NCBI GenBank assembly: GCA_963082975.1
Contig: OY720346.1
Coordinates: 46,415,296-46,479,295 of the forward strand
DNA length: 64,000 nt
Source: Labia minor
Lineage: Eukaryota; Arthropoda; Insecta; Dermaptera; Spongiphoridae
Direction: 5' to 3'
Below, piece by piece: positions 14,811-61,613 of this stretch. Every line of letters begins with the position of its first letter. Within the stretch, counting starts at the first letter, position 1. The position numbers and the translations under genes were made by a program. The notes beneath the pieces were generated by a model, which was given only the letters and a program-made list of their open reading frames with translations, had not been told where the DNA came from and did not search any database.

Positions 14811-15232
14811 AGCTGGAGTGTCTCCACTCGACTATCTCGCAATTTGAATTGGATTAAATAACATAATATATTATATTTAAATTAAATTTAATTAATTATA
14901 AATTATAAATTAAAATTAATAAATAATATTTATTAAACCAGCGCATGTTTGGCTCTTTGTTGATGGCACCACGTGACGTGTTGGCGCGTGAGATTTGCAG
15001 TGTTAAAAAATTAATTCTGGTACTTACAGCAAATAAATAAGCTGAAATTCTAGATATAGCATTTTTATACAATTATTTTTACGGTCACTTTAGAAGAAAA
15101 AAAATCAAAACGTTGTAGGTAATATCCCTCTTCCGGTTGAGCTACATTTCTCAAAAGTTGATAGAAAACTATGAATTTTGAATAATGCCCATGTACCAAA
15201 TTTCATCATTCTAGTTTTTGCGTAATCTTGGT

Positions 15233-15264
<32 letters not shown>

Positions 15265-15380
15265 GACATTTTTCTCAACCTTAGTGAAAATGATTCAGGA
15301 ACCTTCAAAACGTATAAAAACATCAAAATCACAACATCGAAAATTTTCGTGATCGCAATAATATCTCTTACGAGGTAGTA
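14811..15380 (-). mobile_element. Helentron-like non-autonomous element (HINE), family A copy 1
   Basis: About 570 bp. In element orientation (minus strand) it starts with a short hairpin-forming repeat (ACTATCTC-type, here mutated near 15365-15380). It carries a GT/TATG microsatellite in the middle (15238-15265) and ends with GCGAGATAGT followed by the hairpin TGGAGACACTCCA. The repeat near the 3' end is the inverse of the one at the 5' end. Full relatives lie at 17460, 24746 and 61012. It has no protein; a frame reading KFGTWALF...LPT is repeat sequence. Confidence 0.8.
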
Positions 15381-15524
15381 AAAATACTAAAATATCAGAC
15401 CTAACTATTTTAACTTCAAATTTATATATGGTAGCTTAATAAAATTTGAAAGTTACATGCGATCAAAACAGATTTTAACCAATTAAAAGATAAGAGAAAT
15501 TTAATTAAAATTAAAATGGTTAAG

Positions 15525-15590
15525 GATAGGTATGGGTGGAGAAATGTTATTGCTACAGATAAGAACTGGTGCCTCAGATTTAGATAGATA
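15525..15590 (+). pseudogene. LINE C-terminal tail fragment
   Basis: The frame reads DRYGWRNVIATDKNW. This matches the D-R-x-x-W-R-N-V-x-A motif that ends the retrotransposon frame at 18549-18725 (DRDVWRNVVAAAKNFF). Only this short tail is recognisable. Confidence 0.5.
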
Positions 15591-16408
15591 CTAATTAATT
15601 ATTTTATATGAAACTTATAATATAATTATGTTTGAGGGTGCATAGAGATCATGCATTTACTTATAATCCTTATAATCCACTAATCCACAAATAATCTCAT
15701 CTGATTTTAATGAATAAATCTTAATTTCGGAAACCATAATTCTATTCTCAATCTCTTACATTCTAATTATGACACCCAATTATTAATTTTTTAGTAGTAA
15801 AAAACAAAAAAATATGTAAAAAATTTGTATTTTTTTGATTTATAAATTATTCAATCGAGAATTAAATAATCTAACTTTTTGAGAAAAACATTATTAAATA
15901 TTTATTTGTTTTATTTATTATTCTCTTTTTTTAAGTTTGTTTGAAAAATTTGATGTATTTTAATGTATTCTACGTATACATTGTTTTTTTTTATGATGCA
16001 AATTAATAAATATTTTATATACATATATCCATATAAAAGAAAGAAGGAAAACAATTTTTTCAAATAAAAGAAAAAAAAAATAAAAAAAAATGAATAACTC
16101 ACAAAATCACTCATTTAGAGTTGCATCCTCTTTTTGATCAGTATTCAACATAGAGGGAGAGAGAAATAAAGGAAGACAAGATATATATATATATATATCT
16201 ATATTCAAAATAATCCCTGCTCTTTTTAAAAATATGAATAAAAATTACTATCTATTTTATGATTACTATATATTAAAAAAACAAGTAGAATAATAAATTA
16301 AAATATATTGACTTTTTGAATTTATTTGAAAAAATCTTAAAAAGTTCTCAAACTATTTTCTTTTCTTTTTTTAATATCTTTTTAAGATAATTCTTTAATA
16401 TATAGACA

Positions 16409-17049
16409 TAAGTTGACCTGTGGCCAGGTCCGAACCGACCGACGGTTTGAAGTAAATTAATTTCCAGCTACAGAAACAATTTCAAATAATTTTAATATAT
16501 CTATTAATGTAATAAAAAACAGATATGAATATAACATAAATATTTTTAATTTTATTTTATTTATAATATATAGCTGAAGTAGCTGGCGTTACCCGGCGTT
16601 ACCCGAGGCTGTGACGTCATGAAGGGCTGGGTGACGTCATATAATTTTAAATTAAGAAAAACATAATGAAGATGATTTTTCCCGAGGATAAAACCAATAC
16701 ATTCGTGGTGATATGTAAAAAAATCTCCTCATGTGAAATTTGGTGTGAAAATAACCCTTCCCTTCCTATCGTCGATCGCTAATACTACCACTTCCGGTTT
16801 CCGGATTTGCACCAAAAGTTGATCAATTCATCCCACTGATGCATTAAGTAAATATACCAAATTTCATCAAAATCGGTTGAGCCGTTCAGGCTGTACACAT
16901 CTATACGGACGGACGGACGGACGGACAGACATCATGCTAAAAATACTTTTTTCTGTTAAGAAAATGCATGATTCGTGGAGATAAGTAAAAATCTCCACAT
17001 GTGAAATTTGGTGTGAAAACAATACCTCCCTTACTATCGTCGGTCGGTA
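16409..17049 (-). mobile_element. Helentron-like non-autonomous element (HINE), family B copy 1
   Basis: About 640 bp, 5' end on the right. The 5' end on the minus strand is TTACCGACCGACGATAGT. A GTCC/GTCT microsatellite lies at 16909-16930. Toward the other end come CGTCGGTCGGT, the inverse of the 5' repeat, and the perfect 6-bp-stem hairpin GACCTGGCCACAGGTC, ending in AACTTA. It also contains AATTTCATCAAAATCGGTT, a motif widespread in arthropod repeats, two TGACGTCAT palindromes near 16611-16640, and a duplicated CGTTACCCGG unit. There is no coding capacity. Confidence 0.85.
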
Positions 17050-17459
17050 ACAAGTATATTTTATATTCCATTCAGTATTACTTCAAATGATTTGTTCAAA
17101 AAGCAAGTAGATTTATTTAAAATATTAGTCTGATTATATCTGATCATATATATCTGAGGCAATTTTTCTAGTTCTAATAATCAAGAGTGTTTTAAAAGCC
17201 TGTAGTTTTACTTATTGTATCCAATTAAAAGTGAATTCGTGAAATATTGTGTTATATGATGGGAATAGGAAGAAGCCCTGACAAATGGATATAATAGGCA
17301 ATGGATACTATTTTCAGGAAAAAACCTTTCTTAATTGAAAACCTTTCAAACAAATGAAAATTCCTGTTACTTTTTGAATTTAAACGTACCTTGTACACAA
17401 CCATGAGTGAAATTTAGTAATCTGTTGAATAAATTGAGATTTTAAAAATATATTCATTT

Positions 17460-17578
17460 TACTATCTCTGGCGAGATAGTATTGCGATCACGAAAATTTT
17501 CGATTTTGAGATTTTGATGTTTTTATACGTTTTGAAGGTTTCCGAATCATTTTCACTAAGGTTGAAAAAAATGTCTGC

Positions 17579-17628
<50 letters not shown>

Positions 17629-18009
17629 TGAGAAATGTAGCTCAACCGGAAGAGGGTCATTACCTACAACGTTTTGATTTTTTTTCCTAAAAATTTTACC
17701 GTAAAAATAAAGATATATGTTTGGTAATCTTTCACATGATTACTAATTGTATAAAACTCTTATATATAGAATTGCAGCTTGATTGAAACGCTAAAAGTAC
17801 CAGAATTAATTTTTTAACACTGCAAATCTCACGCACCAACACGTGACGTGGTGCCATCAACAAAGACCCAAACATGCGCTGGTTTAATAAATATTATTTA
17901 TTAATTTTAATTTATAATTTATAATTAATTAAATTTAATTTAAATATAATATATTATGTTATTTAATCCAATTCAAATTGCGAGATAGTCGAGTGGAGAC
18001 ACTCCAGCT
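17460..18009 (+). mobile_element. HINE family A copy 2, opposite orientation
   Basis: In plus orientation it begins with the 8-bp-stem hairpin ACTATCTCTGGCGAGATAGT, then ATTGCGATCACGAAAATTTT. It has a long GTCT/CT/GT microsatellite (17576-17630) and ends GCGAGATAGTCGAG, then TGGAGACACTCCA, then GCT. Relative to other copies it has lost the segment next to the microsatellite, so slippage or recombination there is likely. It faces copy 1 (14811-15380) in inverted orientation. Confidence 0.85.
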
Positions 18010-18329
18010 AATTTAAAATTCAGACTCTGTAAACACAATAGTACTATTTTTGGAATAATTTGGGAGAAGGAGATTTTGGCCTGAAAGTGCTATTAGCAAA
18101 ATTGTTCTTAAAACTCTCCTCCTTCATTCTGATTGACTTAAATCTAATAGTATCTAGTTAAGTATTCGTGTGTCTATATTTATTTTTAAAGTATAATAAT
18201 ATTCGAAAAGAATTTAAATTAAGTTTGAAATCGGATAGCACCTGTTATTATGCAGTAAAGAGGCTTGTTTTGTAAAAATTATTATTCAAGGGTATTAAAA
18301 AATTATAATCTATAAAAAAAATATTTTAC

Positions 18330-18725
18330 CAGTTGTATTATATGGGTGTGAGGCGTGGTCTATGACATTAGGCGATGAAAGTAGATTTAGAGTATTTGAC
18401 AATGAAGTTCTTCGAAGTGTTTATGACCTCTATGTATCGCCAGACCAAGTTAGGGTCATAAAATTGAGAAGGTTGTGATGGGCCGGACATGTGGCTAGAT
18501 AAAGAAAGAGGAAATACTTCGGAGAAACCTATTTTTGAGGAGACCGATTGGAAAGGGACCGGTTGGTAGTAGAAGTTGAGCAGACATTGTAGGAAGATAC
18601 GTAAGAGAGATAGAAGAAAATAGGAGTTAGATAGTAGTTGCTCAGGATAGGGACGTTTGGAGGAATGTGGTTGCTGCGGCCAAGAATTTCTTCCATTGTG
18701 AGTACCGTATAGCCACAAAGATAAA
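18330..18725 (+). pseudogene. non-LTR retrotransposon 3' end (reverse transcriptase C-terminus)
   Basis: The frame reads PVVLYGCEAWSMTLGDESR, then FRVFDNEVLRSVYDLYVSP, then RVIKLRRL and WAGHVAR after a stop. After frame changes it continues GKGPVGS and ADIVGRYVREIEEN, and ends AQDRDVWRNVVAAAKNFF. These are the standard closing motifs of LINE ORF2 proteins (YGCExW, WAGHVxR, DRxxWRxxV). Several stops and shifts make it dead. It lacks the catalytic core, as expected for a 5'-truncated insertion. Confidence 0.8.
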
Positions 18726-18917
18726 TAAATAGATATTTATTTTTATTTAAATTAAGTAAATTGATTCGTTTATATAAAAACAAAGTTATATGTATTTCTT
18801 TGATTTGTTCTATTATTTGAATAAAAATAGATAAATGTGTAAACTGGCTAATATGTGCCATTAAACAAAACAAAAAAAAAAATAAAAATAAAACACAATA
18901 CATTTAATTATCTTTGT

Positions 18918-19205
18918 TAGAGATTCTCGAACTTGGTAAAGTGGCGGAAAAATGTTGCGTGCGCCATGAGGGCGTTATTATCGGGCAATCAAGCGGATGA
19001 GAAAGCTTATTACCATTACCCACCAAAAGGGCCTCCATGACGATAACATTTTTCTGTCACCATACATGTACCACTGGTGGAATCTTATAACTTGATGGTA
19101 ATACCTATGTGAATAGTTACTTTTAGTATTGAAATCATCTTAGCGGTAACAGTAATTTTTGTGATAGTTTTGTGGTACCAACATGAAAAAGTTTGAGAAC
19201 TTCTG
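18918..19205. mobile_element. degraded hAT-like MITE
   Basis: The left end AGAGATTCTCGAACTTGG and the right end, on the opposite strand CAGAAGTTCTCAAACTTT, form an imperfect hAT-type inverted repeat. The flanking octamers ATCTTTGT and ATCTATAC agree at five of eight positions, so the target duplication is doubtful. No coding content. Confidence 0.5.
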
Positions 19206-19213
19206 ATCTATAC

Positions 19214-22155: not shown

Positions 22156-22163
22156 CTCTATGT

Positions 22164-24509: not shown

Positions 24510-24725
24510 TTTTTTTGAAGTGAAACTTCTTTAGCGGCGTCCTGACATTTGGTTGAGAATGGAGAGTGAATTGAAAAATTGAAATTTCGTAACGTAACGC
24601 AAGAGAGAAAGAAGATATAGGTATAACGAGTGAGAATGAGATAGCCTCTATCTGCGTTTCCCTTTTGTGCTGTCTTTCGTTCTAATCCCCACTCTAGGTC
24701 CAAAGTCCATTACGCGCATGCGCGC
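24510..24725 (-). promoter_or_regulatory. GC-richer patch with NRF1-type palindrome
   Basis: The 10-bp palindrome GCGCATGCGC lies at 24714-24723, inside ACGCGCATGCGCGC. This is the core NRF1 binding sequence of animal promoters. On the minus strand an ATG at 24703 follows about 11 bp later and opens a 76-codon frame (MDLEWGLERKTAQKGNADRG), but that frame has no recognisable domain and ends in low complexity. This could be a small promoter with a first exon, or just the end of an unknown repeat. Confidence 0.3.
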
Positions 24726-24745
24726 TAGTTAAGTCATATATAATT

Positions 24746-25366
24746 AGCTGGAGTGTCTCCACTCGACTATCTCGCAATTTGAAATGGAATAAATAACATA
24801 ATATATTATATTTAAATTAAATTTAATTAATTATAAATTATAAATAATAAATAATAAATATTAAACCAGCGCATGTTTGGCTTTTTGTTGATGGCACCAC
24901 GTTACGTGTTGGCGCGTGAGATTTGCAGTGTTAAAAAATTAATTCTGGTAATTTTAGCGAATCAATCAAGCTGAAATTCTATATATAGCAGTTTTATACA
25001 ATTATTAATCATGTGAAAAATTATCAAACATATATCTTTATTTTTACGGTCACTTTAGAGGAAAAAAAATCAAAACGTTGTAGGTAATGACCCTCTTCCG
25101 GTTGACCTACATTTCTCAAAAGTTGATAGAAAACTATGAATTTTGAATAATGTCCATGTACCAAATTTCATCATTCTAGCTCAAACCGTTTTTGCGTAAT
25201 CTTGCCTACATACATACACACACACATACACACACACACACACACATACAGACATTTTTCTCAACCTTAGTGAAAATGATTCAGGAACCTTCAAAACGTA
25301 TAAAAACATCAAAATCTCAACATCGAAAATTTTCGTGATCGCAATACTATCTCTGGCGAGATAGTA
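24746..25366 (-). mobile_element. HINE family A copy 3
   Basis: A complete copy of about 620 bp, minus orientation. The 3' end is TGGAGTGTCTCCA as seen from the left side, then GACTATCTCGC. The microsatellite is (CA/TACA)n at 25204-25248. The 5' hairpin ACTATCTCTGGCGAGATAGT is perfect at 25346-25365. The fragment of an EEP endonuclease starts about 270 bp beyond its 5' end. Confidence 0.85.
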
Positions 25367-25374
25367 AAAATTGA

Positions 25375-25377
<3 letters not shown>

Positions 25378-25407
<30 letters not shown>
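25378..25407 (+). repeat. (TA)n microsatellite
   Basis: An uninterrupted TA dinucleotide array directly beside the 5' end of family A copy 3. Confidence 0.9.
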
Positions 25408-25409
<2 letters not shown>

Positions 25410-25637
25410 TGAAATAATTAAAATTCTCAAGTCAAATATACAGCGTGCACGCATACCGACGCATGTAATTGTGTGTGTGAACATGGTCGGCGATTCACAC
25501 GCCAACACATACAGTTATGTGCGTCGATGACCATTCACGTTATTTATCCGAATCTCAACATTACTTGAACACTACTAAATCAATTTAAAATTATTATTGC
25601 ATTTAAAACTGCTTTTCTCTACTCCACAGATTTCACT

Positions 25638-26042
25638 ATGCCGAAAAAAAATAACGACCAAAATTTAGACGATATTATTTATTTCATACACCGTTCACTA
25701 CTGGTTTATAGCCACACAGGTGCTAATGCACTTGAACGAGGCGAAGATAAAATCCCTCTAATTCTCGGGGGAGATTTTAATGTAAATTTTGGATCTGATG
25801 ATTCGTTGCCGTTGATCAACTTTCTTCGAGAAACATTTGGTCTGCTTATAAATAACGATCCCAAGGAATCAACAACAAAATCTGGAACTACAATAGATGC
25901 TGTTTTTACACGTTATATAGAAAATATCGAATCACGAACATATATATCTTATTTTAGTTATCACAAGCCATTAATATCAGTATTACCAATTGAAGCACCA
26001 ACCGACAATAGTACAGGCAATGTAGATATGATGATAGAGTAG
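25638..26042 (+). CDS. EEP-type endonuclease domain, C-terminal fragment (possible Helentron endonuclease)
   Basis: An open frame of 134 aa with the C-terminal half of an endonuclease/exonuclease/phosphatase fold. PLILGGDFNVNF carries the catalytic GDFN at residues 45-48, TTKSGTTIDAVFTR the S/T-x-x-I-D motif at 82-90, and SYHKPLISV the final histidine at 109 in the place of the usual S-D-H. The N-terminal half, with the first N and E catalytic residues, is missing, so the protein cannot be active. Domains of this type occur in LINEs and in Helentrons; the G-T-T-I-D-A-V-F-T-R ... Y-H-K-P form recalls the endonuclease beside Pif1-type helicases in arthropods. Family A copy 3 lies 270 bp upstream. 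The Helentron assignment is inference; the EEP call is firm. Confidence 0.7.
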   Translation: MPKKNNDQNLDDIIYFIHRSLLVYSHTGANALERGEDKIPLILGGDFNVNFGSDDSLPLINFLRETFGLLINNDPKESTTKSGTTIDAVFTRYIENIESRTYISYFSYHKPLISVLPIEAPTDNSTGNVDMMIE

Positions 26043-26768
26043 ATAATAATAATAATAAAGCGAATATTTGTTACGAAAATTTTATACTGTTATATGTCTT
26101 TCGAAATGATCCCTTTATTTTTCTCTATTTCTCTCTCACTCACACTCTCAACTAAAATTTATCTTATTCTCTAGATTGTAAGAAGTTTCACTTCCGTCAC
26201 GTGTACGATGCTGCACATTTTGCTTTTTTTTTTTTCAAATTTCTCACTCTTATAGATCAATTTTTTTTTTAAGAGAGACAAAAAAGTATTGTTATATTGA
26301 GATTTAATTTAAAAAAAAATCGTAAAATTATAAATATTGAAAATAATGTCTGAAATTATAATTAAGGATAATTATTTTGTTTTTAAATTTTCATTTGATT
26401 TTCGAGCAGGTAGAATCCATTATATTTTCATACATTTCGTCTATTTGTGCAACCCTTTTAGTATCTCATTTACTTTCTCTAGCTATTGTCTTAAGATGCG
26501 TTTTTAAATCAGTGAGAAAGTAATTAGAAACGAACGCTCTTAACATGTATAACCATTAGATTGGACTCACTGAGAATAACAAAAAGCAAAAAAAAAATAT
26601 ACAAAACAATACAAAAACAACTAAGAAATAAAAAAATCAAACAAAATATACTCTGAGTATCAATTAAATTGAATATAATCATTTTAAAATATAAATATAA
26701 TGTGTGAATAAAATATAATGAATAAAAACCAAAGAAAAACAAATCATTTAAATCCCAGATCTATCCTA

Positions 26769-37160: not shown

Positions 37161-37619
37161 TTACTTTCCCGCATACTTCGTATAAGGGAAGTATTGGAAT
37201 CGTCAAAAATTTCGACTTCGAGATTTCGATAGATCTTGACGTTTTAGACCTCCCTGAATCGGAAAATAACATTTTTCGAATTATGTCTGTGTGTGTGTAT
37301 GTATGTATGTATGTATGTAATGTCTGTAAGCAAATTTACTCAAAAACTAATCAAGCTAGGACTTCGAAATTTGGTACACCGATATTATTCACAGTTTGTA
37401 GATTTCTATCAAAATTTCGTCAAAATCGGTTAACCGGAAGTGGTACTTTACCTACACTGGTTGCGTTTACCTTTCAAGTAAAGTACCAGTTTGCTTCGAG
37501 ATATTTGCTTCATATTTTGTATATAGATTTAAAAATATGAAAAAAATTGAGATACCAAATTTCATCATGATCTGACTACCGGAAGTGACATTTTACCTAT
37601 ACAAGTAGCGTTTCTTTTT

Positions 37620-38127
37620 TACAGACCGACGATAGTAAGGGAGGTATTGTTTTCACACCAAATTTCACCTATGGATATTTTTAGGTACATATCTCCACGA
37701 ATCATGCATTTTCTTAACAGAAAAAAGTATTTTTAGCATGAAGTCTGTCCGTCCGTCCGTATAAATGTGTACAGCCTGAACGGCTCAACGGATTTTGATG
37801 AAATTTGGTATATTTTCTTAATACATCAATAGGATGAATTGATCAACTTTTGGTGCAAATCCGGAAACCGAAAGTGCTAGTATTGCCGATCGAAGAGAGG
37901 AAGTGAAGGGTTATTTTCATATCAAATTTCACGTGAGGACATATCTCCACGTGTTATGCACTTTGTATTGGTTTTATCCTCGAGAAAAATCATCTTCATT
38001 AGTTTTTTCTTAATTTAAAATTATATGACGTCACCCAGCACTTCATGACGTCACAGCCAGCCCTTATATATTATAAATAAAATAAAATTAAAAATATTTA
38101 TATTATATCCATATCTGTTTTTTTACA
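37620..38127 (+). mobile_element. HINE family B copy 2, nested in family C
   Basis: It begins TTACAGACCGACGATAGTAA and runs in family B order through a GTCC microsatellite (37744-37760), a TGACGTCA pair (38028-38052) and TATTTATATTATATCC. It stops near 38127, before the subterminal repeat and hairpin, so its 3' end is lost. Confidence 0.75.
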
Positions 38128-38160
38128 TTTAAAATATCAGTTAACCGGAAATAGCACTTT

Positions 38161-38164
<4 letters not shown>

Positions 38165-38192
<28 letters not shown>
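38165..38192 (+). repeat. (TA)n microsatellite
   Basis: TA array within family C between the nested family B copy and the 3' end. Confidence 0.85.
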
Positions 38193-38195
<3 letters not shown>

Positions 38196-38519
38196 TTTAC
38201 CAAATATCAAATTTGACACCATTAAACTAATACGAACTGGCTCTTTATCAATACCAAGTTTACACATTCTAAATATTCATTCACAACTCTTTATACCTAT
38301 TTATATGCGGGAAAGTCTAGGGGAGGACACTCCCGCTTATTTTTTTTCGAAGGGGAAATATTTATGGGCACTCTTGTGTTATGAAGGTATTTATTCAGCA
38401 GGGTAATACCGTTCTTATAGCGACTAAAACCACTTCAGGCCTATTTATAGTAAATAATGCTCCCCTGGAACTGCTGTAAAGTATTAGATCTCGTTGTCTA
38501 AATTCAATTTATTTTATTT

Positions 38520-41488: not shown

Positions 41489-42085
41489 TAAGTTGACCTG
41501 TGGCCAGGCGCAGAACCGACCTTCGGTTTGAAATAAATTAATTTCCAGCTACAGAAACAATTTCAAATAATTTAAATGTATCTATTAATGCAATAAAAAT
41601 CAGATATAGATATAACATAAATATTTTTAATTTTATTTTACTTATAATAAGTAGGAGCTCACTGTGAAGGGCTGGATGACGTCATATAATTTTAAATTAA
41701 GAAAAAACTAATGAAGATGATTTTCCCGAGGATAAAACCAATACAAAGTGCATGATTGGTGGAGATATATAAAAAAATCTCCTCATGTGAAATTTGGTTT
41801 GAAAATTTCCCTTCCTATCGTCGATCCGTAATACTACCACTTGCGGTTTTTGGATATACACCAAAAGTTGATCAATTCATCATACGGATGCATTAAGTAA
41901 ATACTCCAAATTTCATCAAAATCCGTTGAACCGTTTAAGCTGTACACATCTATACGGACGGACAGACATCATGCTAAAAATACTTTTTTCTGTTAAGAAA
42001 ATGCATGATTCTTGGAGATATGTAAAAATCTTCACATGTGAAATTTGGTGTGAAACAATACCTCCCTTACTATCGTCGATCGGTA
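41489..42085 (-). mobile_element. HINE family B copy 3
   Basis: A nearly complete copy of about 600 bp. On the plus strand it starts TAAGTTGACCTGTGGCCAGG (hairpin partly mutated) and GAACCGACC. It ends with ACTATCGTCGATCGGTAA. The microsatellite has shrunk to GGACGGACAGAC. One TGACGTCAT survives near 41678. Confidence 0.85.
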
Positions 42086-48489: not shown

Positions 48490-48520
<31 letters not shown>

Positions 48521-48526: not shown

Positions 48527-48801
48527 TTATTTATTTATTTATACAATCTCTATATTCTAATAACTTCAAATCATAAATTTATTTTTTGATAAAGTCAATA
48601 TGTAAGTATCTAAATTTTATTCGAATTACATTATATAACTATACGAGGGTGGTCTGAAAAGTTTCCGACCTGGCCAAGAAAAACGATCTTTTTCAATTTT
48701 TTGATTGTTTTATTTTTCAACATAATCTCCATCAACACTTAAATTAATTAATAAATTATTTAATTAATTAATTAAATTTGATTTAATTTAATTTAAGTCT
48801 C

Positions 48802-49017
48802 ATCAACAGTTATGAATCGACGCAAAAATTCGTTTGGATTACGCCTACAGCGCCAAATTGTCGTTAGAAATGGTTTTTCGAAGCAATTTTTCGTCTAACG
48901 TTAGGAAATGCGGCACCCACATTGCACACAGCTTTCCATATTCAAATGGTTTTGCAAAATATTTCGCACACGTTCAGCTGACATCGTACAGGTCTCAGCT
49001 ATCTTGAATTTTGAAAA
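48802..49017 (-). pseudogene. mariner transposase fragment
   Basis: The minus-strand frame reads FKIAETCTMSAERVRNILQN, then HLNMESCVQCGC. After stops it continues RCRRNPNEFLRRFITVDET. This is the helix-turn-helix (IA....S..RV..IL...L.M) leading to the first catalytic aspartate in TVDET of mariner transposases (DD34D). Stops between the two parts make it inactive, and the remaining catalytic domain is missing. Confidence 0.85.
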
Positions 49018-49032
49018 ATAAAACAAAAAAAA

Positions 49033-49667
49033 TAAGTTGACCTGTGGCCAGGTCCGAACCGACCGACGGTTTGAAATAAATTAATTTCCAGCTACAGAAA
49101 CGATTTCAAATAATTTTCATATATCTATTAATGTAATAAAAAACAGATATGGATACATAAATAATAAATATAAACATTTTTAATTTTATTTTATTTATAA
49201 TATATATGCAAGACCAGGCTGTGACGTCATGAATGGCTGGATGATGTCATATAATTTTAAATCAAGAAAAAACTAATAAATATGATTTTTCTCGAGGATA
49301 AAACCAATACAAAGTGCATGATTCGTAGTGATATATAAAAAAATCTCCTTTGGTGTGAAAATAACCCTTTCCTTCCTATCGTCGATCGCTAATACTACCA
49401 CTTGCGGTTTCCGGAATTGCACCAAAAGTTGATCAATTCATCCCACTGATGCATTAAGTAAATATACCAAATTTCATCAAAATCGGTTGAGCCGTTCAGG
49501 CTGTACACATCTATACGGACGGACAGACGGACAGACGGACGGACAGACATCATGCTAAAAATACTTTTTTCTGTTTAGAAAATGCATGATTCGTGGAGAT
49601 ATGTAAAAATCTCCACATGTGAAATTTGGTGTGAAAACAATACCTCCCTTACTATCGTCGGTCGGTA
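49033..49667 (-). mobile_element. HINE family B copy 4, complete, nested in mariner
   Basis: The plus-strand edges are TAAGTTGACCTGTGGCCAGG on the left and ATCGTCGGTCGGTAA on the right. It has perfect ACCGACCGACG subterminal inverted repeats (near 49060 and 49655), a perfect GACCTGTGGCCAGGTC hairpin, and a (GGAC/AGAC) microsatellite at 49516-49550. It sits in an A-run, whose uninterrupted form is preserved at 51424-51433. Confidence 0.9.
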
Positions 49668-50541
49668 AAAATTGAAACTTCGTTTTTCTTGGTCAGGTTG
49701 GAAACTTTTCATCCCACCCTCGTATATGGTATTTACTTTAATAATATATTTATATTTTTTTTAATTAATGCGAGTTAATTTTAATATATTAAAGAATTGG
49801 AACTAATTTTTATAAAACCTGAAATTAAAGATATTTTAATACTAATAAATAAAATTATTTAATTTAGTGTAAAATTATACTTGATTAATGAATTAGTTTT
49901 TAGTCATGATAATTAATAATCTTGATTGATTATATATGGTATATAATTTACTAAAAAAATGTATTGATTATTAATTTAACGAATAATAAATAAAGAAAAA
50001 TCATCAAGTATTAAGAAATTATTTTTAAAATAGGAATATACACTGGGTGCGCCATTATTTATATCGACTTGTAAACCTTGAATTACATTCATATTATTTA
50101 ATCCATTAATATGAGTTGAGATGTTTGTGAAAACAGGTAAAAAATAAATTTCATAAGATAAAATTAAATAAGAATACCTTATCTATTGATGGAAATCGAT
50201 TGATCTTTTTAAGCTATTCAATATTCATATATCAACATAAAAGTTAACGAACCCTGTATATTCATCGACGTCTAAGTCCAATTTAATTGATTTTGTGTTT
50301 TCTTGGCCTTTTTTTATTTACATTTAATACACCCAGAAAATATATATTTTTATTGATTTTGATATTTATCTCTTGGTGAATTGAGTTCTCTCTCTCTCAA
50401 AAGAGAACAGTTTAATTATTTTCATGCAAAAATCAAATCTATATATCTAATCCTAATTAAATGTCATAATAATGAAACAAAAATGTTAGTGGCTCTTTAA
50501 AAAATTTGGAAATTGTAACTTTTGGCCTGAGCTAGTATATA

Positions 50542-51008
50542 CGAAGGCAGGTGAATAAGTCCGTGACTTTTTGAATTTCCCGTCTCTTAAATAAAATGTT
50601 ACACTGTTCCTGTCAGCAGGCAACTATCAGCTGACTCCTGTCGAAATTTTAACCTGAGTCTTTTAGTTGTTGTTTGATATTCATTAATAGCAGAATACCT
50701 CGTGAGAAGAAAATGGAAAAAAGTGAATTTCATGTGCTCATTAAGCATTTTTTGCGGAAACTGAAACCGAGTTTTTCCGCCTTTTCGAAATGTGGATCCA
50801 GCTCAATTCACCAGTGACCAAACAGGAGTCAAAAAAGTGGGTTTCTCGGGGTGAATCGACACCAAAGATGTCCTCGACAAACTTTTTGGAAGGCATAAAA
50901 ATTTGGAGAAACGTTGGACGAAGTGTATAGAGCTCAAAGGGGACTACGTTGATAAATAAAACCTGTGTTTCATTCAACAAGTCACGGACTTATTGACCTG
51001 TCATATAA
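50542..51008 (+). mobile_element. mariner deletion derivative, same family as 4504
   Basis: The left terminal repeat is CGAAGGCAGGTGAATAAGTC, and the right, on the opposite strand, is GACAGGTCAATAAGTCCGTG. The plus-strand frame starts MEKSEFHVLIKHFLRKLKP (transposase N-terminus at 50713). It then jumps to WIQLNSPVTKQESKKWVSRG, and later KNLEKRWTKCIELKGDYVD, the C-terminus. The bulk of the DNA-binding and catalytic domains is deleted and frames change, so it is dead. It abuts the next mariner at 51011. Confidence 0.85.
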
Positions 51009-51010
51009 TA

Positions 51011-51486
51011 CGAGGGGGGATGAAAAGTTTCCGACCTGACCAAGAAAATCGATGTTTTTAATTTTTTTTTTTTTTTTGTTATATTTTTCAACATCAACAC
51101 TGATACATTTCTCATAACGGTGTTCTAATTAATTTAATTAATTAATAAATTATTTAATTAATTGATTAAATTTGATTTAATTTAATTTAATTTAAGTCTC
51201 ATCAACAGTTATGAATCGACGCAAAAATTCGTTTGGATTACGCCTACAGCGCCAAATTGTCGTTAGAAATGGTTTTTCGAAGCAATTTTTCGTCTAACGT
51301 TAGGAAATGCGGCACCCACATTGCACACAGCTTTCCATATTCAAATGGTTTTGCAAAATATTTCGCACACGTTCAGCTGACATCGTACAGGTCTCAGCTA
51401 TCTTGAATTTTGAAAAATAAAACAAAAAAAAAATTGAAAAACTTCGTTTTTCTTGGTCAGGTTGGAAACTTTTCATCCCACCCTCG
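51011..51486 (-). mobile_element. mariner deletion derivative, uninterrupted sister of 48644
   Basis: Flanked by TA. The left end is CGAGGGGGGATGAAAAGTTT and the right end matches 49680-49722. Over about 220 bp (51195-51423) it appears base-for-base identical to 48795-49030. It lacks family B and so shows the pre-insertion state. It also keeps ACTGATACATTTCTCATAAC near 51097, which is missing in the other copy. Confidence 0.9.
51198..51414 (-). pseudogene. mariner transposase fragment, second copy
   Basis: Same minus-strand content and same stops as the fragment at 48802-49017, including the TVDET catalytic motif. The shared stops mean that the family amplified after it was already inactive, so another element's transposase must have moved it. 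Confidence 0.85.
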
Positions 51487-51799
51487 TATATATGAATATA
51501 TAATAATATATTAAGTTAAAAGGAAATATAATAAGACAAATGGAATTAATGCTAAGGATAAATATATATTAATTAAATTTTTTCCATTAAATAAAAGCGA
51601 AAATCATTTGTCAGGATATAATTATGCCGTGAGTTGACATATCTGTTGGATTTAAAGTTGACTAACTTACGTATATCATAAAGCTGATTAATGAATGTCT
51701 CATTGGTACTCACCGATTTGTATGGTTCAAATCCTGTCGGATGGAGGGGGTGGGGAAAATGCTCCCTCTGAAAAATAAACAAAAAGTCACATTAGTTAT

Positions 51800-53582: not shown

Positions 53583-53586
53583 TAAT

Positions 53587-53797
53587 GATTCAATCAAGCT
53601 GAAATTCTATATATAGAAGTTTTATACAATTTTTAATCATGTGAAAAATTATGAAACATATATCTTTATATTTACGTTCAGTATAGAGGAAAAAAATCAA
53701 AACGTTGTAGGTAATGACCCTCTTCCGGTTGAGCTACATTTCTCAAAAGTTGATAGAAAACTACGAATTTTGAATAATGCCCAGGTACCAAATTTTA
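53587..53797 (-). mobile_element. HINE family A copy 4, internal fragment
   Basis: It matches the middle of the complete copies (TCAAGCTGAAATTCTATATA, CCTCTTCCGGTTGAGCTACA, TTTCTCAAAAGTTGATAGAA). Both ends and the microsatellite are missing. Confidence 0.8.
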
Positions 53798-54058
53798 ATA
53801 TTCATAATAAAAATTAAAATAAAAAGTAATAAATAGAAATTTAATTAGTACCTATACATTAGTTAACATTATTTTAGGCTTCATCTGCATTGTATAACTT
53901 CAATCGTTATTTTCAAATCCCTTACCCCCTTACGTATTATGCTTTTGTAAGAAATGCAACTGAATAAATTATATATTTTATTTTTTAAGGATTTTCTCAA
54001 AATTAAACGCGTTTTAGTAATCTAATTGAGTTGTTACATTGGATGTAGTAGAAAATAA

Positions 54059-54592: not shown

Positions 54593-55200
54593 AAGGTGTT
54601 CGGGATAAATTTGACACATTTTTAATTAATTAGGTTAGAGATATTAACAGAAACTACTACTCATTTAAAAGTTTGGGCCATTCTTTATTCATATACAAGA
54701 TGGCAGAAAGGTTGGATGACTGGAAGCCACCTCAATCATGGAAGAGAATAACTTGCATCTTGATGATACGCGCCGGCCATCAAAATAAGGATATTATGAC
54801 TGCTTCCCAATGCTCCCTGAACACAGTAAAAACAATCAGGCATGAATTAGAGACTTACAATGGTGACTACGAGGATGTAGCAAGAAGAAAGATCCCAAGC
54901 AGACAATCTGATTGCGTTCGTTCAACAAAATTCCTCGCAAATTTGCAGAAACACGTGTTGAAGAACCCTGGCATTGGAATTCGGGCTTTGTCATGCGAAA
55001 TGAATGTTTCAGCCTCTACTATGAAGCTTGCACTCAATGAAAACCTTCGCAACTACTCATACAAGCAACGCAAAGGTCAGCTGCTCACAGAAAAGGCCCG
55101 TGATAAACGTTTGATAAACGCGAAGAAACTTCTAAGCAAAGTGAAACATCCTGCTGAGCGTAAATGGGTTCTCAGAAACCACTATAACGATTTTTTTTGA
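54593..55200 (+). mobile_element. Tc1/mariner-superfamily element, 3'-truncated
   Basis: The left terminus reads GGTGTTCGGGATAAATTTGA. About 100 bp later the transposase gene begins. The right terminus and the catalytic half are absent, so the copy is truncated after about 55150. Confidence 0.75.
54700..55200 (+). pseudogene. Tc1-like transposase, N-terminal DNA-binding part only
   Basis: The better start is the ATG at 54700 (MAERLDDWKPPQSWKRITCI); an in-frame ATG at 54673 lies upstream. Residues 14-50 (SWKRITCILMIRAGHQNKDI, then SQCSLNTVKTIRHEL) form the first helix-turn-helix. Residues 87-115 (GIGIRALSCEMNVSASTMKL) form the second, as in Tc1/mariner paired-like domains. The frame then runs KGQLLTEKARDKRL and LLSKVKHPAE. 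There homology should continue into the DDE/D domain (a SDEK motif), but instead the frame runs into RKWVLRNHYNDFF and stops. About half the protein is missing, so it cannot transpose. It could in theory still bind ends and act as a repressor. Confidence 0.8.
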
Positions 55201-55236
55201 AATTCACACTATAGATAGTATTTATAAAGAAAAATC

Positions 55237-56306: not shown

Positions 56307-56760
56307 ATCTAGAGCAGTGGTTCTTAAACTGTGGTCCGCGGACCCCTGGGGGTCCGCGGTCCTCGGAAAAAAATCATCGTAAAAATATATACATATATAA
56401 ATATTTAAAGTTCATTGTGTAACTATATCCTCCTAGAGAATTACGGCTATAATTTAATACTATTAATAATACTATTTTATTTTATTAAATTGATAATTAT
56501 GTCAATTAATTTTTTGTGAATAAATAAACATATATAAAAAACTATATATAAAATTTGAATTTTCATCCATTCATTCATTTAAAATCATTTTTCGATTGTT
56601 CCTTTAAAATAACCCCTCTTAGGGGCTCGGAAGGGGAGGCATATAAGGGAATTTTCTTTCACTTTGTTATTGGGGAAAACCAGGGGAGGGGACAGTCTTA
56701 CCCGGAAAAACCCAAATTGTCAGCGTCCACTCTGGGGTTTTAAACAGTTTTAAAGCAAAT

Positions 56761-56870
56761 GTTAATTATAAGTTCATTTCTCAACGAGTTGTATCTTTAA
56801 ATTATTTTTATTAATGTTAATTATAAGTTCATTTCTCAACGAGTTGTATCTTTAAATTATTTTTATTAAT
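56761..56870 (+). repeat. tandem duplication, 2 x 55 bp
   Basis: Two identical 55-bp units (GTTAATTATAAGTTCATTTC...) lie head to tail in the 5' noncoding part of the hAT element. Identity is perfect by eye, so the duplication is young. Confidence 0.9.
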
Positions 56871-57060
56871 TTAATTAATTATAATTAAATTATAGCTAAT
56901 AATAGTTTATTATAGCTAATAATTTTTTTTAATTTTTAGTGTAATTTGCATGATCATTATTTTATAAAAACACTAAACACATTTTGCAATTTCCCAGAAA
57001 GGCTGTTTTTGAGAGTAAGTATAAGTTAGTTTTATGAATAAAAAATATTTATTTTAATAA

Positions 57061-57144
57061 TATTTTAGAATCAAATTACGAAATTAATAATATTTTAGAA
57101 TCAAATTACGAAATTAATAATATTTTAGAATCAAATTACGAAAT
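57061..57144 (+). repeat. tandem array, nearly 3 x 30 bp
   Basis: The unit TATTTTAGAATCAAATTACG plus AAATTAATAA is repeated, the third copy incomplete. It is followed to about 57290 by a looser array of CATTTAAAATGATATTAAA units and then TTATATTTATA triplets, all upstream of the transposase start. Confidence 0.9.
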
Positions 57145-57373
57145 ATATTTATTATATAAATTAATATTCATTTAAAATGATATTAAATCATTTATTTAAA
57201 ATGATTTAAAACATTTATTAAAATGATTTAAAACATTCATTTAAAATGATATTAAAGCATTCATTTAAAATCATATTAAAACATAGCTAGTAAATAATAA
57301 TTCGTTATATTTATATTATATTTATATTATATTTATATTATTGTAGTTCAATGTTAATAAATTACTCCATAAA

Positions 57374-59233
57374 ATGGATCGTTGGCTACAAACTGGTTCA
57401 ACACAGAAACGGAAAGAATCAGATGATGAGGCATCAACAGCAAACTCTACCAAGAAACGCAAAACTAGAAAATATTCGGATGATTATTTATCATTTGGAT
57501 TTACTTATATTTGCAACAATGATGTGGAAAGACCAGTCTGCGTTCTATGTCAGGAAAGTTTATCCAATGAAAGTATGAAACCTGCTAATCTCAGACGTCA
57601 TTTACAAACAAAGCACAGCGAGCATGTTAGTAAGTCTATCGAATTTTTTAAAATGAAAAAAGAAGAACTTAATTCAAGTCAGAAATTGATGGTAAAGACG
57701 GGATCTGGTGGTATGAGTAAGAAAGCAGTAATGGCATCATATGAAGTAGCTCTACTTATTGCTAAAGCAGGAAAGCCGCATAATATAGCAGAGCAATTAA
57801 TTCTTCCTGCTACAAAAGTAATTACAAATATAATGTTAGGAACTAAAGCAGCAAACGATATAAATTTGATTTCATTATCAAATGATACGGTTAAGAATAG
57901 GATTGAAGACATGTCATGTAATATAAAAGAAGAATTAATATCGAGAGTGCGCAAAAGTCACTATTACTCATTACAATTGGATGAAAGTACTGATGTCACT
58001 AATAATGCCAATTTGTTAGCTTTCATTAGATATGAGTTTGAAAATCAAATACAAGAAGATGTATTGTTTTGTGATTCACTACCTTCACGAACGACAGCTA
58101 ATGACATATTTAACAGTTTGAATAATTTTATAACCGAAAATGAAATAGAGTGGCCAAAATGTGTTGGAATTTGCACTGATGGTGCTCGTGCAATGTCAGG
58201 TACAAGAACTGGATTGATTGCTCTTATTAAAAATGTTGCGCCTCAGGTTGTTTGGAATCATTGCTGCATTCACAGAGAATCATTAGCAGCCAAAAATATG
58301 TCACCAGATTTGAAAAGAACATTAGACGAAGTAGTTAAAATTGTCAATTTCATTAAGGCTCGTCCACTTAATTCCAGAGTTTTTAAAATTTTGTGTGAGG
58401 AAATGGGTAGTCAACATACACATTTATTATTACATACAGATGTACGTTGGTTGTCCCGCGGGAAAGTACTCATTCGCCTTTTTGAGCTTCGAGATGAAAT
58501 ACGATTGTTTTTAATAGATGCGCATTTTGAACTGACCGAATGTTTCAATGATTTTATCTGGTTAGCTAAGGTGGCTTACTTGACTGATATTTTTACAAAA
58601 TTGAACGAACTTAATTTGAGCCTGCAAGGTACTGTTGTAAATATATTTAAAGTTGAAGATAAAATAGAAGCAATGATTAAAAAAATCGACTTGTGGTCGA
58701 AACGCATCCAGAACGGTGTATATGAGTCTTTTCCAACTCTCAATGATTTCATAGAAAGCTCCAGTGAAAAATTGCTTAATCAAACGCGTCAATTATTTGT
58801 TGAACATTTAATTACTTTGAAAAGCAACTTCAGGAAGTATTTTTCTACTCCTGATCCTTGCAATAACTGGATCAGAGATCCATTTAATATGGAAATTACA
58901 AATGCTAAACATTTATCTGCACCTGAACAAGATATTCTCGTGGAATTATCATGTGATACAACTTATAAACTAAAATTTAACAAAACTGAATTGAGCAACT
59001 TTTGGTTACTTCTCAGGTCAGATTATCCTGCGCTTGCAAATAAAGCACTTCAACACTTGATTCCATTCTGCACAACATATTTATGCGAACAAGCTTTTTC
59101 GGTACTATTTTATATTAAGTCTAAATATAGAAACAAATTAAATGTAGAGCCGGATCTTAGATTAAAAGTTTCCAATATTAAGCCAGATATTGAGATTCTT
59201 GTTTCAAGAAAACAACTGCATACATCTCATTAA
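57374..59233 (+). CDS. hAT transposase with BED zinc finger, apparently intact, 619 aa
   Basis: Catalyses cut-and-paste movement of the surrounding element in the nucleus. The start ATG at 57374 sits in AAAATGG, a good eukaryotic context. Residues 30-85 hold a BED-type finger: C56-x2-C59, H76 and H81 (VCVLCQ...LRRHLQTKH), DNA-binding. The catalytic domain follows with LDESTD (D203), CTDGARAM (D269), the conserved C297-x2-H300 (NHCCIHRESL), DVRWLSRG with R358-W359, and the C-terminal dimerisation and catalytic region CEQAFSVL with E572. These are the D, D and E of hAT enzymes plus the accessory motifs. The length fits the family (about 600-700 aa). There are no stops, frameshifts or introns. 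The protein resembles the hAT lineage that gave rise to vertebrate ZBED5, FAM200 and SCAND3-type genes. The flanking terminal repeats and 8-bp duplication support a mobile copy over a domesticated gene. Upstream tandem repeats may contain its promoter. Confidence 0.93.
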   Translation: MDRWLQTGSTQKRKESDDEASTANSTKKRKTRKYSDDYLSFGFTYICNNDVERPVCVLCQESLSNESMKPANLRRHLQTKHSEHVSKSIEFFKMKKEELNSSQKLMVKTGSGGMSKKAVMASYEVALLIAKAGKPHNIAEQLILPATKVITNIMLGTKAANDINLISLSNDTVKNRIEDMSCNIKEELISRVRKSHYYSLQLDESTDVTNNANLLAFIRYEFENQIQEDVLFCDSLPSRTTANDIFNSLNNFITENEIEWPKCVGICTDGARAMSGTRTGLIALIKNVAPQVVWNHCCIHRESLAAKNMSPDLKRTLDEVVKIVNFIKARPLNSRVFKILCEEMGSQHTHLLLHTDVRWLSRGKVLIRLFELRDEIRLFLIDAHFELTECFNDFIWLAKVAYLTDIFTKLNELNLSLQGTVVNIFKVEDKIEAMIKKIDLWSKRIQNGVYESFPTLNDFIESSSEKLLNQTRQLFVEHLITLKSNFRKYFSTPDPCNNWIRDPFNMEITNAKHLSAPEQDILVELSCDTTYKLKFNKTELSNFWLLLRSDYPALANKALQHLIPFCTTYLCEQAFSVLFYIKSKYRNKLNVEPDLRLKVSNIKPDIEILVSRKQLHTSH

Positions 59234-59268
59234 ATATGTAAGTTATATTTAATGAGATAGATGCAGTT
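59214..59268 (+). terminator. 24-bp hairpin spanning the transposase stop codon
   Basis: 59214-59237 and 59245-59268 are inverted copies with 22 of 24 positions paired and a 7-nt loop (GTAAGTT). The stop codon TAA (59231-59233) lies inside the first arm. It could help 3'-end formation or block read-through from outside promoters. No role is proven. Confidence 0.6.
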
Positions 59269-59640
59269 ATTTTTTAAAATATTTCTTATTTAATATTTTC
59301 TGAAAAAAATTATAAAATATTTATATGAATTTAATGTAAGTACCCATTATAATTTGTGAGATTTGTTGCTATGACAATGTTTGTATTTTCTTTCTTCAAT
59401 ATTATAATTTCTAATAATAATAATTTCTAATTTCTGTTCTACAATATGCAAAAAAATCGTTATTCACCAATCACTGTTAGAAATATTCATCATATATCCT
59501 TGTCCTTATGAGATCGTAAGCCAGAAATTAATTAATAAAATGACGTAAAGTACCTAAAGTTGTGATGGGGGTCCGTCAAAAAAAATTTTTTCAAGTGGGG
59601 GTCCGTGGAGTACATAAGTTTAAGAACCTATGATCTAGAG

Positions 59641-61011
59641 CATAGCAAAGAAAAATCACAAAGTAGTAAAATTTTGTATTTAAAAATAATATGTGATAAA
59701 TAAGAATTAGAATAGGAAAATAAATATTTAATTAATTGATTATCCTATATTTATCCTATATTTTTTCAATTTATAAATAGTTAGTAAAAGTATTAGACAA
59801 TTTTGAGATTTGGTACGCTCTCAAGAAAATAGAGAAATCAAGACCATCTGGAACACCTCATGAGTCTAAGACATGAAGACTAGTAAATTTTTAGTCAGCT
59901 TCTCAGAATTATTGTGAATTATTTTTATTTATTCTTAAATCTAAATGAACTTGAAGTGGTGGGCGGACTAGGATTATTATGTATGCTTAAAATATAAAGA
60001 AATATAATATATAATTTCAAAATTTCTTTTATTATATAAAAAATAATTATTTAAAATTTATAATTTGTTCAAAAGTAAATAAAAAAAATTGTGGCATCGG
60101 TAATTATAAAGATAATTGAAAAAAAATCTCTTATTGTGATCATAGAGTTATAAAAATAATATCATAAATATAATACATTATTAATTTTTAAAATATTTTG
60201 ACAATTGATATTTCACAGTCGGCTAAATTTAACCTAGTACCAATACTCAAATCCTGCTAGATAGCAACTTCTATTATTAAGTTCTTGAACATTAAACTTA
60301 ATAATAAAATTCAATTACCATTAAATATTTAGATTTGAGGAACAATTCAATAATGTCACCAGGAGCTAGAAAGTGTTCACTCTTTAGAAGTAAGTTAAAA
60401 TTTAAGTAAAAATTTTCAAACAGATTAAGCAAATTATGATAAAAATAATATGAAAATGATAGACATATTTAAAAAATCAAACTAACTAAAATTAATCTCT
60501 GTTTTCCATCATATAAACATAACTATTAAATCTAATTTTTGATGTTAAATTTCAATTTGAATCATAAAAACTTTTAATAGCAGATTATTTTAAGATTTAA
60601 AAATATATAGATCTAGCTATTAAATATATTGAATATACTTATAGTTTAGAAATAAATCCTACAAGATTGTTCTATTAAAGCCAGATTAAAATTTCAATTA
60701 AATTTTCAACACAATGTAAATATTTTTTAGTTGATTTTTTTTTTCTTTTTTTTTTAATTGTATATTTAATAAAAATATGAAAAAATTTAATTAAAATTAA
60801 AATGTAATTAAATTAAAGGTTATATCAATATAATATAAATTAAAATGTTTGTTTATAATAATGAAATATTTTTTATTGATTTTTTTTTTTTAATGAATTT
60901 AAAAGTAAAGTTAAGTATTCTGAAAATGATTGAAACCGCAAACTTTAATTAAATATCTGGTTTTCAGATTTGGATTTCTTTTCATATCCTATACATAGAA
61001 ATTTAAAAAAA
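59641..61011. other. AT-rich noncoding stretch
   Basis: No gene is supported. A weak tRNA-like segment may lie on the minus strand at about 60225-60300 (AGTTTAATG...AGCAGGATTTGAG). Confidence 0.5.
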
Positions 61012-61613
61012 ATCTGGAGTGTCTCCCCTCGACTATGTGACAAATTTGAGTTGGATTAATTAACATATATATTATATTTAAATTAATAAATAAATAAATT
61101 TTAAAATTAATAAATAATATTTATTAAACCAAACGTGTTTGGCTCTTTGTTGATGACACCACGTCATGTGCTGGCGCGTGTTTGGCAGTCAACGTGTTAA
61201 AACATTAATTTCGGTACTTTCAGCGAATCAATCAAGCTGAAATTTTATATAAAGCAGTTTTATACAATTTTTATAATCATGTGAAAAACTATCAAACATA
61301 TATCTTTATTTTTACGGCCAGTAGAGGAGAGGAAAAAATATGAGAACATTGTAGGTAATGATCCTCTTCCGGATGAGCTACATTTCTCAAAAGTTGATAG
61401 AAAACTACGAATTTTGAATAATTCCCATTTACCAAATTTCATGATTCAAGCTCAAACCGTTTTTGCGTAATCTTGTCCACATACACACATACACAGACAT
61501 TTCTCTCAACCTTAGTGAAAATAATTCACAGGAACTTTCAAAGCGTATAAAATCATCAAAATCTCGAAATCGAAAATTTTCGTGATCGCAATTCTATCTC
61601 TGGTGAGATAGTA
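61012..61613 (-). mobile_element. HINE family A copy 5
   Basis: A complete copy of about 600 bp. The left edge is CTGGAGTGTCTCCCCTCGAC. The right edge is CTATCTCTGGTGAGATAGTA, where the stem now contains one mismatch. The microsatellite is reduced to ACACACATACACAG. It is more diverged than copies 2 and 3 and so probably older. Confidence 0.85.

What the first reader, a model, noticed from the sequence alone, without database searches (positions are those of the whole stretch)
14811..61613. Three unrelated-sequence repeat families share one Helentron/HINE blueprint
Families A (14811, 17460, 24746, 61012), B (16409, 41489, 49033) and C (37161) differ in sequence but have the same order of parts. 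Each has a 5' subterminal repeat (ACTATCTC, ACCGACCGACG or ACTTTCCCGCATA), a GTCY/GT microsatellite, the exact inverse of that repeat near the 3' end, then a terminal hairpin (TGGAGACACTCCA, GACCTGGCCACAGGTC or GGGAGGACACTCCC) and CTTA/CTAA. This is the published plan of HINEs such as DINE-1. Three families side by side, each with its own matched repeat pair, suggest several parallel Helentron lineages, each perhaps recognised by its own Rep/helicase.
Basis: partly seen in the sequence, partly recalled or inferred. Interest (0 to 1): 0.75.

Follow-up and report, generated by a model that had tools for sequence, protein, structure and literature searches.

The report
Four HINE (Helentron passenger) repeat families
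The repeats are non-coding passengers of Helentrons, a known kind of jumping DNA; three of the families are relatives of one another rather than unrelated, two of them fill roughly a tenth of the stretches sampled, and a fourth family in the same window carries part of a Helentron enzyme, which ties the group to its likely driver.

Summary
The eight repeats are real and mostly have the described parts. They fit HINEs (DINE-1-like non-autonomous Helentrons), a published kind. Corrections: (1) A, B and C are not unrelated: their 5' ~330 bp, from terminal tip through microsatellite to CCGGAAG, is one homologous block; only the tips differ. (2) C contains a nested B (37614-38130), and C+B recurs elsewhere with other flanks. 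Elsewhere in the assembly the same endonuclease and D 3' end lie 3.4 kb downstream of a Rep domain, so D's parent is most likely a Rep+endonuclease Helentron. Insertions sit in T|T, with no duplication beyond one or two Ts of a T-run at the empty sites found. A and B each cover 4.7-4.8% of a 200-kb sample. Partners of A, B and C were not identified, so 'each with its own Rep' is untested. Known kind, new members; interest moderate to low.

The parts
14812..15380 (-). HINE family A, copy A1 (eroded 5' repeat; 3' end runs into a T-run)
17460..18008 (+). HINE family A, copy A2 (3' terminus may include TAA to 18011); 5' palindrome loop inverted relative to A3; core between microsatellite and CCGGAAGAG deleted
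24747..25366 (-). HINE family A, copy A3, nested in D
61013..61613 (-). HINE family A, copy A4 (3' subterminal repeat eroded)
53587..53804 (-). internal fragment of a family A copy
16409..17049 (-). HINE family B, copy B1
41489..42085 (-). HINE family B, copy B2
49033..49667 (-). HINE family B, copy B3, inserted in a repeat whose closest empty copy is at about 51352-51491
37162..38339 (+). HINE family C (composite: A-related 5' block, nested B, own 3' end)
37614..38130 (+). B copy nested in C, lacking about the last 100 bp of B
   Evidence: B3 against this stretch: score 758, shuffle maximum 58
24517..26223 (+). Family D: 1707 bp (1087 bp without A3), Helentron derivative with palindromic subterminal repeats and endonuclease fragment
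24517..24531 (+). D 5' palindromic subterminal repeat GAAGTGAAACTTCTT, directly after a T-run
   Evidence: 0 of 5000 shuffles
25644..26039 (+). C-terminal half of a Helentron-type EEP endonuclease, open frame to the TAG after 26039

Best explanation
A, B, C and D are HINEs: non-autonomous elements moved by the Rep/helicase(/endonuclease) proteins of Helentrons elsewhere in the genome. Most likely mechanism: Rep nicks at the 5' terminus in a T-run (T|TAC.. in A-C, T|GAAGTG.. in D), a strand is peeled off by rolling-circle copying until the 3' subterminal repeat plus 3' hairpin signals the end, and the single strand is joined into a T|T site without target duplication. Shown here: the ends, T-run insertion, lack of a duplication beyond one or two Ts, abundance, recurrence of composites at new places, and for D a Rep domain and endonuclease beside the same 3' end in the same genome. 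Inferred: nicking, strand transfer, the terminator role of the hairpin, that Rep and endonuclease at that place form one element, and which Rep drives A, B and C. A, B and C descend from one ancestral 5' block; their tips diverged as matched sets.
For: Shared block: nine sequences align from TTAC through GTATTG, ATGTCTG(n), ATGAAATTTGGTA to CCGGAAG. Ends (window plus L009-L067; only tips that begin TAC counted): T precedes in 31 of 32 A and 17 of 18 B tips, after setting aside 2 rows that are B's internal repeat; B ends CTTA|T in 19 of 19 ends that align to B3's end. Empty sites: nested B in L062 has 4+3 Ts against 6 in uninterrupted B copies; A in L065 has 4+3 against 6 if TAA is counted as the element's; B3 in the window has 4+8 against 10 in the closest paralogue. 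D ends: left end seen in 3 copies (window, L069, L070), right end in 4 (also L068), flanks differ outside. D parent: Rep PF14214 at C2:16282032-16282490 (+, 83.9 bits), endonuclease N-half at C2:16285449-16285733 (+), then endonuclease C-half and D 3' end in L075, 98.4% identical to the window's D over 567 bases. Composites: C+B in window, L071 and L072 with different 5' flanks; C without B in L073, L074; D+A in window and L070. Same plan in print: PMC4067079 (abstract, Results part 1 of 3, section 15, passages), PMC2374699 (section 6 part 1 of 2, passages).
Against: No Rep was tied to A, B or C. The 3' tail of D forms only a weak hairpin (-1.8 kcal/mol), and 3' ends of A and C do not fold clearly better than shuffles. 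The 5' hairpin of B is no better than shuffles, nor is A1's. One extra T at filled sites can also be read as a 1-bp T duplication; for B3 other paralogues of the site have T-runs of other lengths, so that site cannot decide. Rep and endonuclease at C2 lie in separate open frames (779 and 442 aa), and the DNA between them and the 5' end were not read.
Confidence: 0.92

Rival explanations
1. MITEs of a DDE (cut-and-paste) transposon with subterminal inverted repeats and a TT or T duplication.
For: Filled sites hold one or two Ts more than empty ones. DINE-1 was once called a MITE for this reason (PMC2374699 passages).
Against: The 3' inverse lies 27-36 bp inside, not at the tip. Flank repeats of 2 bp or more in the 8 window copies are T-runs, apart from TGT at B1, and 3 of 8 copies have none. 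D carries Helentron-type endonuclease and its longer relative lies by a Rep domain.
Confidence: 0.04
2. Canonical Helitron (Helitron1) derivatives.
For: 3' hairpin and CTWA tail resemble CTRR.
Against: The 5' end is TAC or GAAG, not TC; insertion is T|T, not A|T; subterminal repeats are inverted pairs.
Confidence: 0.03
3. The three families are convergent: unrelated sequences that acquired the same plan, each from its own Helentron lineage.
For: Tips differ between A, B, C and D; many Rep matches are present. The 3' part of C matches neither A3 nor B3 above shuffles.
Against: A, B and C share an alignable 5' block in the same order. D was not found to share it, so D may be of separate descent (not tested by shuffles).
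Confidence: 0.03

Closest known systems
DINE-1 / INE-1 (Drosophila), Yang and Barbash 2008, PMC2374699 (section 6 part 1 of 2 and passages read)
   Same: Block A1, GTCY-type microsatellite, block A2, variable middle, block B; 5' subterminal repeat with partial inverse beside it; 3' inverse and 3' hairpin; T|T insertion. D. willistoni holds three types with different subterminal repeats.
   Different: Other subterminal repeats; nested composites as found here were not in the parts I read.
HINE-Mo / Helentron-Mo (mite), Thomas et al. 2014, PMC4067079 (abstract, Results part 1 of 3, section 15 and passages read)
   Same: Palindromic subterminal repeats 2-4 nt from the 5' end and their inverse 38-60 bp from the 3' end, T-rich target, varying number of Ts, seven families in one genome, HINEs as deletion derivatives of Helentrons. 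D resembles these most.
   Different: D keeps half of the endonuclease, and its 3' inverse is 29 bp from the end; A, B and C have a shared core, and HINE-Mo lack the DINE-1 core.
Cg_HINE elements (Pacific oyster), PMC7492417 (passages read)
   Same: Eleven HINE elements in one genome, with own subterminal repeat, partial inverse, palindrome and, in several, GTCY-like microsatellite.
   Different: Oyster elements carry satellite-like arrays in the middle.
Helitron2 with asymmetric terminal inverted repeats (Fusarium), PMC5148889 (passages read)
   Same: Hairpin(s) at the ends and a 3' inverse about 20-40 bp inside.
   Different: No endonuclease domain was found in the fungal elements.

Membership tests
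HINE (non-autonomous Helentron) | 5' subterminal repeat with its inverse near, not at, the 3' end | tested here: met
   5 of 8 window copies plus D; 3 of 8 eroded
HINE (non-autonomous Helentron) | palindrome or partial inverse at the 5' subterminal repeat | tested here: met
   24 of 31 genome copies of A pair 6-8 of 8; C and D by letters; B partial and not above shuffles
HINE (non-autonomous Helentron) | hairpin near the 3' end | tested here: met
   stem letters in A, B, C; fold clearly beats shuffles only in B; D weak
HINE (non-autonomous Helentron) | insertion in T|T or T-run without target duplication | tested here: met
   one or two extra Ts, as published
HINE, family D | ends shared with a Rep/helicase/endonuclease element of the same genome | tested here: met
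   3' end plus endonuclease plus Rep on one strand at C2:16.28 Mb; 5' end and helicase not read
HINE, families A, B and C | ends shared with an autonomous element | tested here: inconclusive
HINE (non-autonomous Helentron) | rolling-circle movement | not testable with these tools
   needs a cell assay
MITE / DDE transposon | terminal inverted repeats at the exact ends and a constant target duplication | tested here: not met
canonical Helitron | 5'-TC, 3'-CTRR, insertion between A and T | tested here: not met

The most novel reading that the evidence does not exclude
HINE families change their recognition tips as a matched set (5' arm, 5' partner arm, 3' inverse, 3' hairpin) on an otherwise conserved body, so that one ancestral passenger is handed from one Rep lineage to another; and passengers nested in passengers (C+B, D+A) become new mobile units. 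If so, the tips alone define the family, and the 5' partner arm is dispensable: 7 of 31 A copies have lost or disrupted it, in these 7 with the break just after the left arm and loop, while the left arm stays.
Probability: 0.22. Interest if true: 0.5.

Novelty: new member of a known kind. Interest (0 to 1): 0.3.

Why it matters
It shows that look-alike repeat families with different ends can be one lineage, and that non-coding Helentron passengers can be a large share of a genome (A plus B 9.5% of a 200-kb sample). Family D, with 3490 candidate places and 40 of 40 scored copies (the window's own among them) at 98-100% identity, points to recent movement and gives a concrete element for testing how Helentron ends are recognised.

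Tried and rejected
Rejected: DDE/MITE and canonical Helitron readings (see rivals). The 5' hairpin inversion in A2 (loop TGGC instead of GCCA, exact reverse complement over 20 bp) was considered as a parvovirus-like flip-flop (recalled comparison): 1 of 28 readable loops shows it, so it is taken as a rare local inversion. A genome-wide count of the flipped form was asked for and not answered.

Led nowhere: exact 3'-end patterns of A and B in viral contigs (0 hits each); endonuclease alignment in viral contigs (53 pattern places, none confirmed); a core pattern in the window (0 matches); translated C in the protein database (0 of 21 candidates at E 0.001); Rfam and tRNA scans of the window (0 hits). 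The hAT protein search did not name the host.

Limits: genome DNA searches score only the best 40, so counts are lower bounds; (41 matches of 55 candidates) understates C, whose 3' end occurs 3564 times with up to 3 mismatches against 0 for the reversed pattern. The 39 A copies came from the 40 scored (the 40th is A2 itself), picked by likeness to A2; 8 of the 39 lacked a usable 5' end. L001-L008 were dropped from the counts because L001 is the window and L002-L008 repeat L009-L015; one search's tally of 71 insertions still holds such repeats and is not used. Of one search's candidate empty sites, the rows for one A copy (L015, the same as L008) were set aside because they match B tips beside it, not an empty site. 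In some searches only 5' tips that begin exactly TAC were counted (32 of 38 A rows, 20 of 37 B rows; many of the other B rows are its internal repeat), and 3' ends only where the match reaches to within 6 bases of the reference end. The 20 sample stretches were chosen at round-number coordinates, not drawn at random. One search ended with a script error after printing the coverage; the reversed-query control was rerun (0 hits). Three further A copies (two in L066, one in L053) have short deletions in the partner arm at other points.

Full report
Observation. The window lies in a 604-Mb assembly of 71 contigs, is 74% A+T, and holds eukaryotic transposons. Each has a 5' tip, a GT-type microsatellite about 115 bp in, and a 3' tip. 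The inverse of the 5' repeat near the 3' end is exact and beyond chance in 5 of 8 copies (A2, A3, B1, B3, C) and eroded in 3 of 8 (A1, A4, B2). Folding as single-stranded DNA: the 5' tips of A2, A3 and A4 beat shuffles (0, 0.007, 0.007 of 300), those of A1 (0.35), C (0.09) and B (0.46-0.80) do not clearly; the 3' tips of B beat shuffles (0, 0.04, 0), those of A (0.08-0.83) and C (0.11) do not clearly.

Not unrelated. Local alignment puts A3 with C at 264 (shuffle maximum 52), A3 with B3 at 120 (60) and B3 with C at 106 (60); A2 with B1 is not significant (46; 8 of 100 shuffles reach it), because A2 lacks the core; the 3' part of C matches neither A3 nor B3 (5 and 28 of 100 shuffles reach the score). 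A nine-sequence alignment runs from the TTAC tip through GTATTG, ATGTCTG and the microsatellite, ATGAAATTTGGTA and CCGGAAG. This is the A1-microsatellite-A2 order published for DINE-1 (PMC2374699, section 6 part 1). What differs is the tip set. In an alignment of 9 (8 distinct) 5' tips, an 8-bp stem forms standard pairs in 78% of cells; 3 pairs change on both sides and 7 cells do so (2 of 500 shuffles reach 7 cells; 224 of 500 reach 3 pairs; the number of further pair types is not above shuffles); slid versions score 0.174 or less against 0.313. With so few families this is suggestive only.

Composites. The middle of C, 37614-38130, is a B copy that begins at B's own 5' end in a T-run and stops about 100 bp short of B's 3' end. 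Of four further C copies read (of 41 matches), L071 and L072 hold the same nested B with other 5' flanks, and L073 and L074 have no B; in L072 the C 3' end was not found in the stretch read. A C 3' end with up to 3 mismatches occurs 3564 times in the genome, the reversed pattern 0 times.

Family D. A weak endonuclease match beside A3 (Pfam Exo_endo_phos_2, E 0.004, below its cut-off) led to a fourth element. Of 23 protein relatives, 3 are named 'ATP-dependent DNA helicase' of the spider Trichonephila clavipes, the naming expected for a Helentron's C-terminal endonuclease (inference); ten of the relatives scanned gave only weak endonuclease matches or none, and no helicase or Rep domain, as expected of fragments. 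In the own genome 150 of 1416 candidates were scored; 148 of the 150 are 100% identical over 124 residues, the window's own among them. Comparing the window with L068, L069 and L070 fixed the ends: T-run, GAAGTGAAACTTCTT ... AAGAAGTTTCACTTC, 29 bp, T-run; the left end was read in 3 of the 4, the right end in all 4. None of 5000 shuffles gives a 15-bp inverse. D spans 24517-26223 and holds A3. L070 holds an A copy at the same place, with other DNA outside D, so D+A moved together; L068 has an A 5' part followed by about 1.2 kb of other DNA before the D part; L069 has no A there but a changed sequence around the site, so it is not a clean empty site for A3. The D DNA search scored 40 of 3490 candidates, all 98-100% identical; apart from the window itself the matches cover 824-878 bases. 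D keeps only the C-terminal half of the endonuclease (alignment), so it is unlikely to encode a working enzyme (inference).

Parent of D. Rep domains (PF14214) give 104 matches among 126 candidates in the assembly, 0 of 14 control genomes having any, and 17 of the 104 lie in open frames of 1345-2181 aa; whether these are Helitrons or Helentrons was not settled. The endonuclease N-terminal half, absent from D, gives 36 matches among 44 candidates. One, C2:16285449, lies 3.4 kb downstream of a Rep domain at C2:16282032 on the same strand, and its continuation (L075) has the endonuclease C-half and the D 3' end, 98.4% identical to the window. Rep and endonuclease are in separate open frames (779 and 442 aa) and the stretch between was not read, so one element is inferred. 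Another complete endonuclease, C5:31703761, has the same D 3' end (L076) with no Rep match listed near it. A second possible pair, C1:72861294 (Rep match below its cut-off) with C1:72864464, was read 3' of the endonuclease (L077) and shows none of the eight tip motifs tested.

Boundaries and target. In the window plus L009-L067, T precedes TAC in 31 of 32 A and 17 of 18 B tips (one search gave 19 of 20 for B with two internal-repeat rows included), and B ends CTTA|T in 19 of 19. Three insertions have an empty counterpart: B in B (L062; 7 Ts against 6), A (L065; 7 against 6, TAA counted as the element's; the match is 83% identical), B3 in a repeat of the window (12 against 10 in the closest paralogue; other paralogues have T-runs of other lengths). 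A further B, in D (L069), leaves one base more than the other D copies have there, at a T|T step. This equals the published behaviour: T-rich targets, no duplication, varying T number (PMC4067079). A 1-bp T duplication cannot be excluded.

Abundance. In 20 stretches of 10 kb at round-number coordinates on seven contigs, A covers 9650 and B 9431 of 200,000 bases, and reversed queries hit nothing. 8 of 20 stretches held no copy, so the share is uneven.

The 5' palindrome. Among 39 A copies, 31 had a readable 5' end. 24 of 31 pair 6-8 of 8 bases; 7 of 31 (L010, L014, L018, L026, L042, L043, L044) have lost or disrupted the partner arm, with the break just after the left arm and loop, and keep the left arm (one with a mismatch). 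L010, L042 and L044 share one joint, as if that form had itself spread (inference). This suggests that the left arm and its 3' inverse matter and the partner arm does not.

Place among known kinds. HINE plan, several families per genome with their own subterminal repeats, and derivation from endonuclease-bearing Helentrons are all published (PMC4067079, PMC2374699, PMC7492417, PMC3630058; abstract, sections or passages as stated). Six literature searches were made, none for these very sequences, so 'new' here means only that no named match was found in the calls made. The composites and the shared body with differing tips are the less usual points; end bypass and composites are discussed for Helitrons in PMC4067079 (section 15), and changing subterminal repeats on a conserved core can be seen in the DINE-1 table of PMC2374699.

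Noticed in passing
window 17461-17480 versus 25346-25365: The 20-bp 5' palindrome of A2 is the exact reverse complement of that of A3 (loop TGGC against GCCA); 1 of 28 readable loops has this form.
   Followed up: partly
L010, L014, L018, L026, L042, L043, L044: Recurrent deletions in family A with one common left break, just after the left arm and loop of the 5' hairpin, and varied right breaks.
   Followed up: partly
window 57347-59230: Open hAT-type transposase frame (628 aa from stop to stop, ZBED5-like, best relative 58% identical).
   Followed up: partly
window 54634-55197: Possible N-terminal part of a Tc1/Tc3-like transposase (weak helix-turn-helix matches below cut-off).
   Followed up: no
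window 7188-7436: Tc5-type transposase DNA-binding domain (Pfam HTH_Tnp_Tc5, E 8.3e-18).
   Followed up: no
window 48625-49742 and 51008-51512: Repeat with inverted ends; the first copy holds B3, the second is its closest empty site.
   Followed up: yes
family B, element positions about 11-90 and 279-360: Internal direct repeat of the 5' tip region, in B1-B3 and in many of the sampled B copies.
   Followed up: no
window 9742-10553, minus strand: Two adjacent open frames (158 and 99 aa) without a Pfam match over cut-off.
   Followed up: no
L066 (A 3' end at 9570, B 5' tip at 9574 on the minus strand), L015, L068 around 2445-2460: B copies sit in the T-run at or near the 3' end of A or D copies, as if one HINE's end served as target for another.
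   Followed up: no
G000:C5:46739897-46792979: Five Rep matches of identical score with stops, spaced 5.7-9.8 kb apart, as in a tandem array.
   Followed up: no
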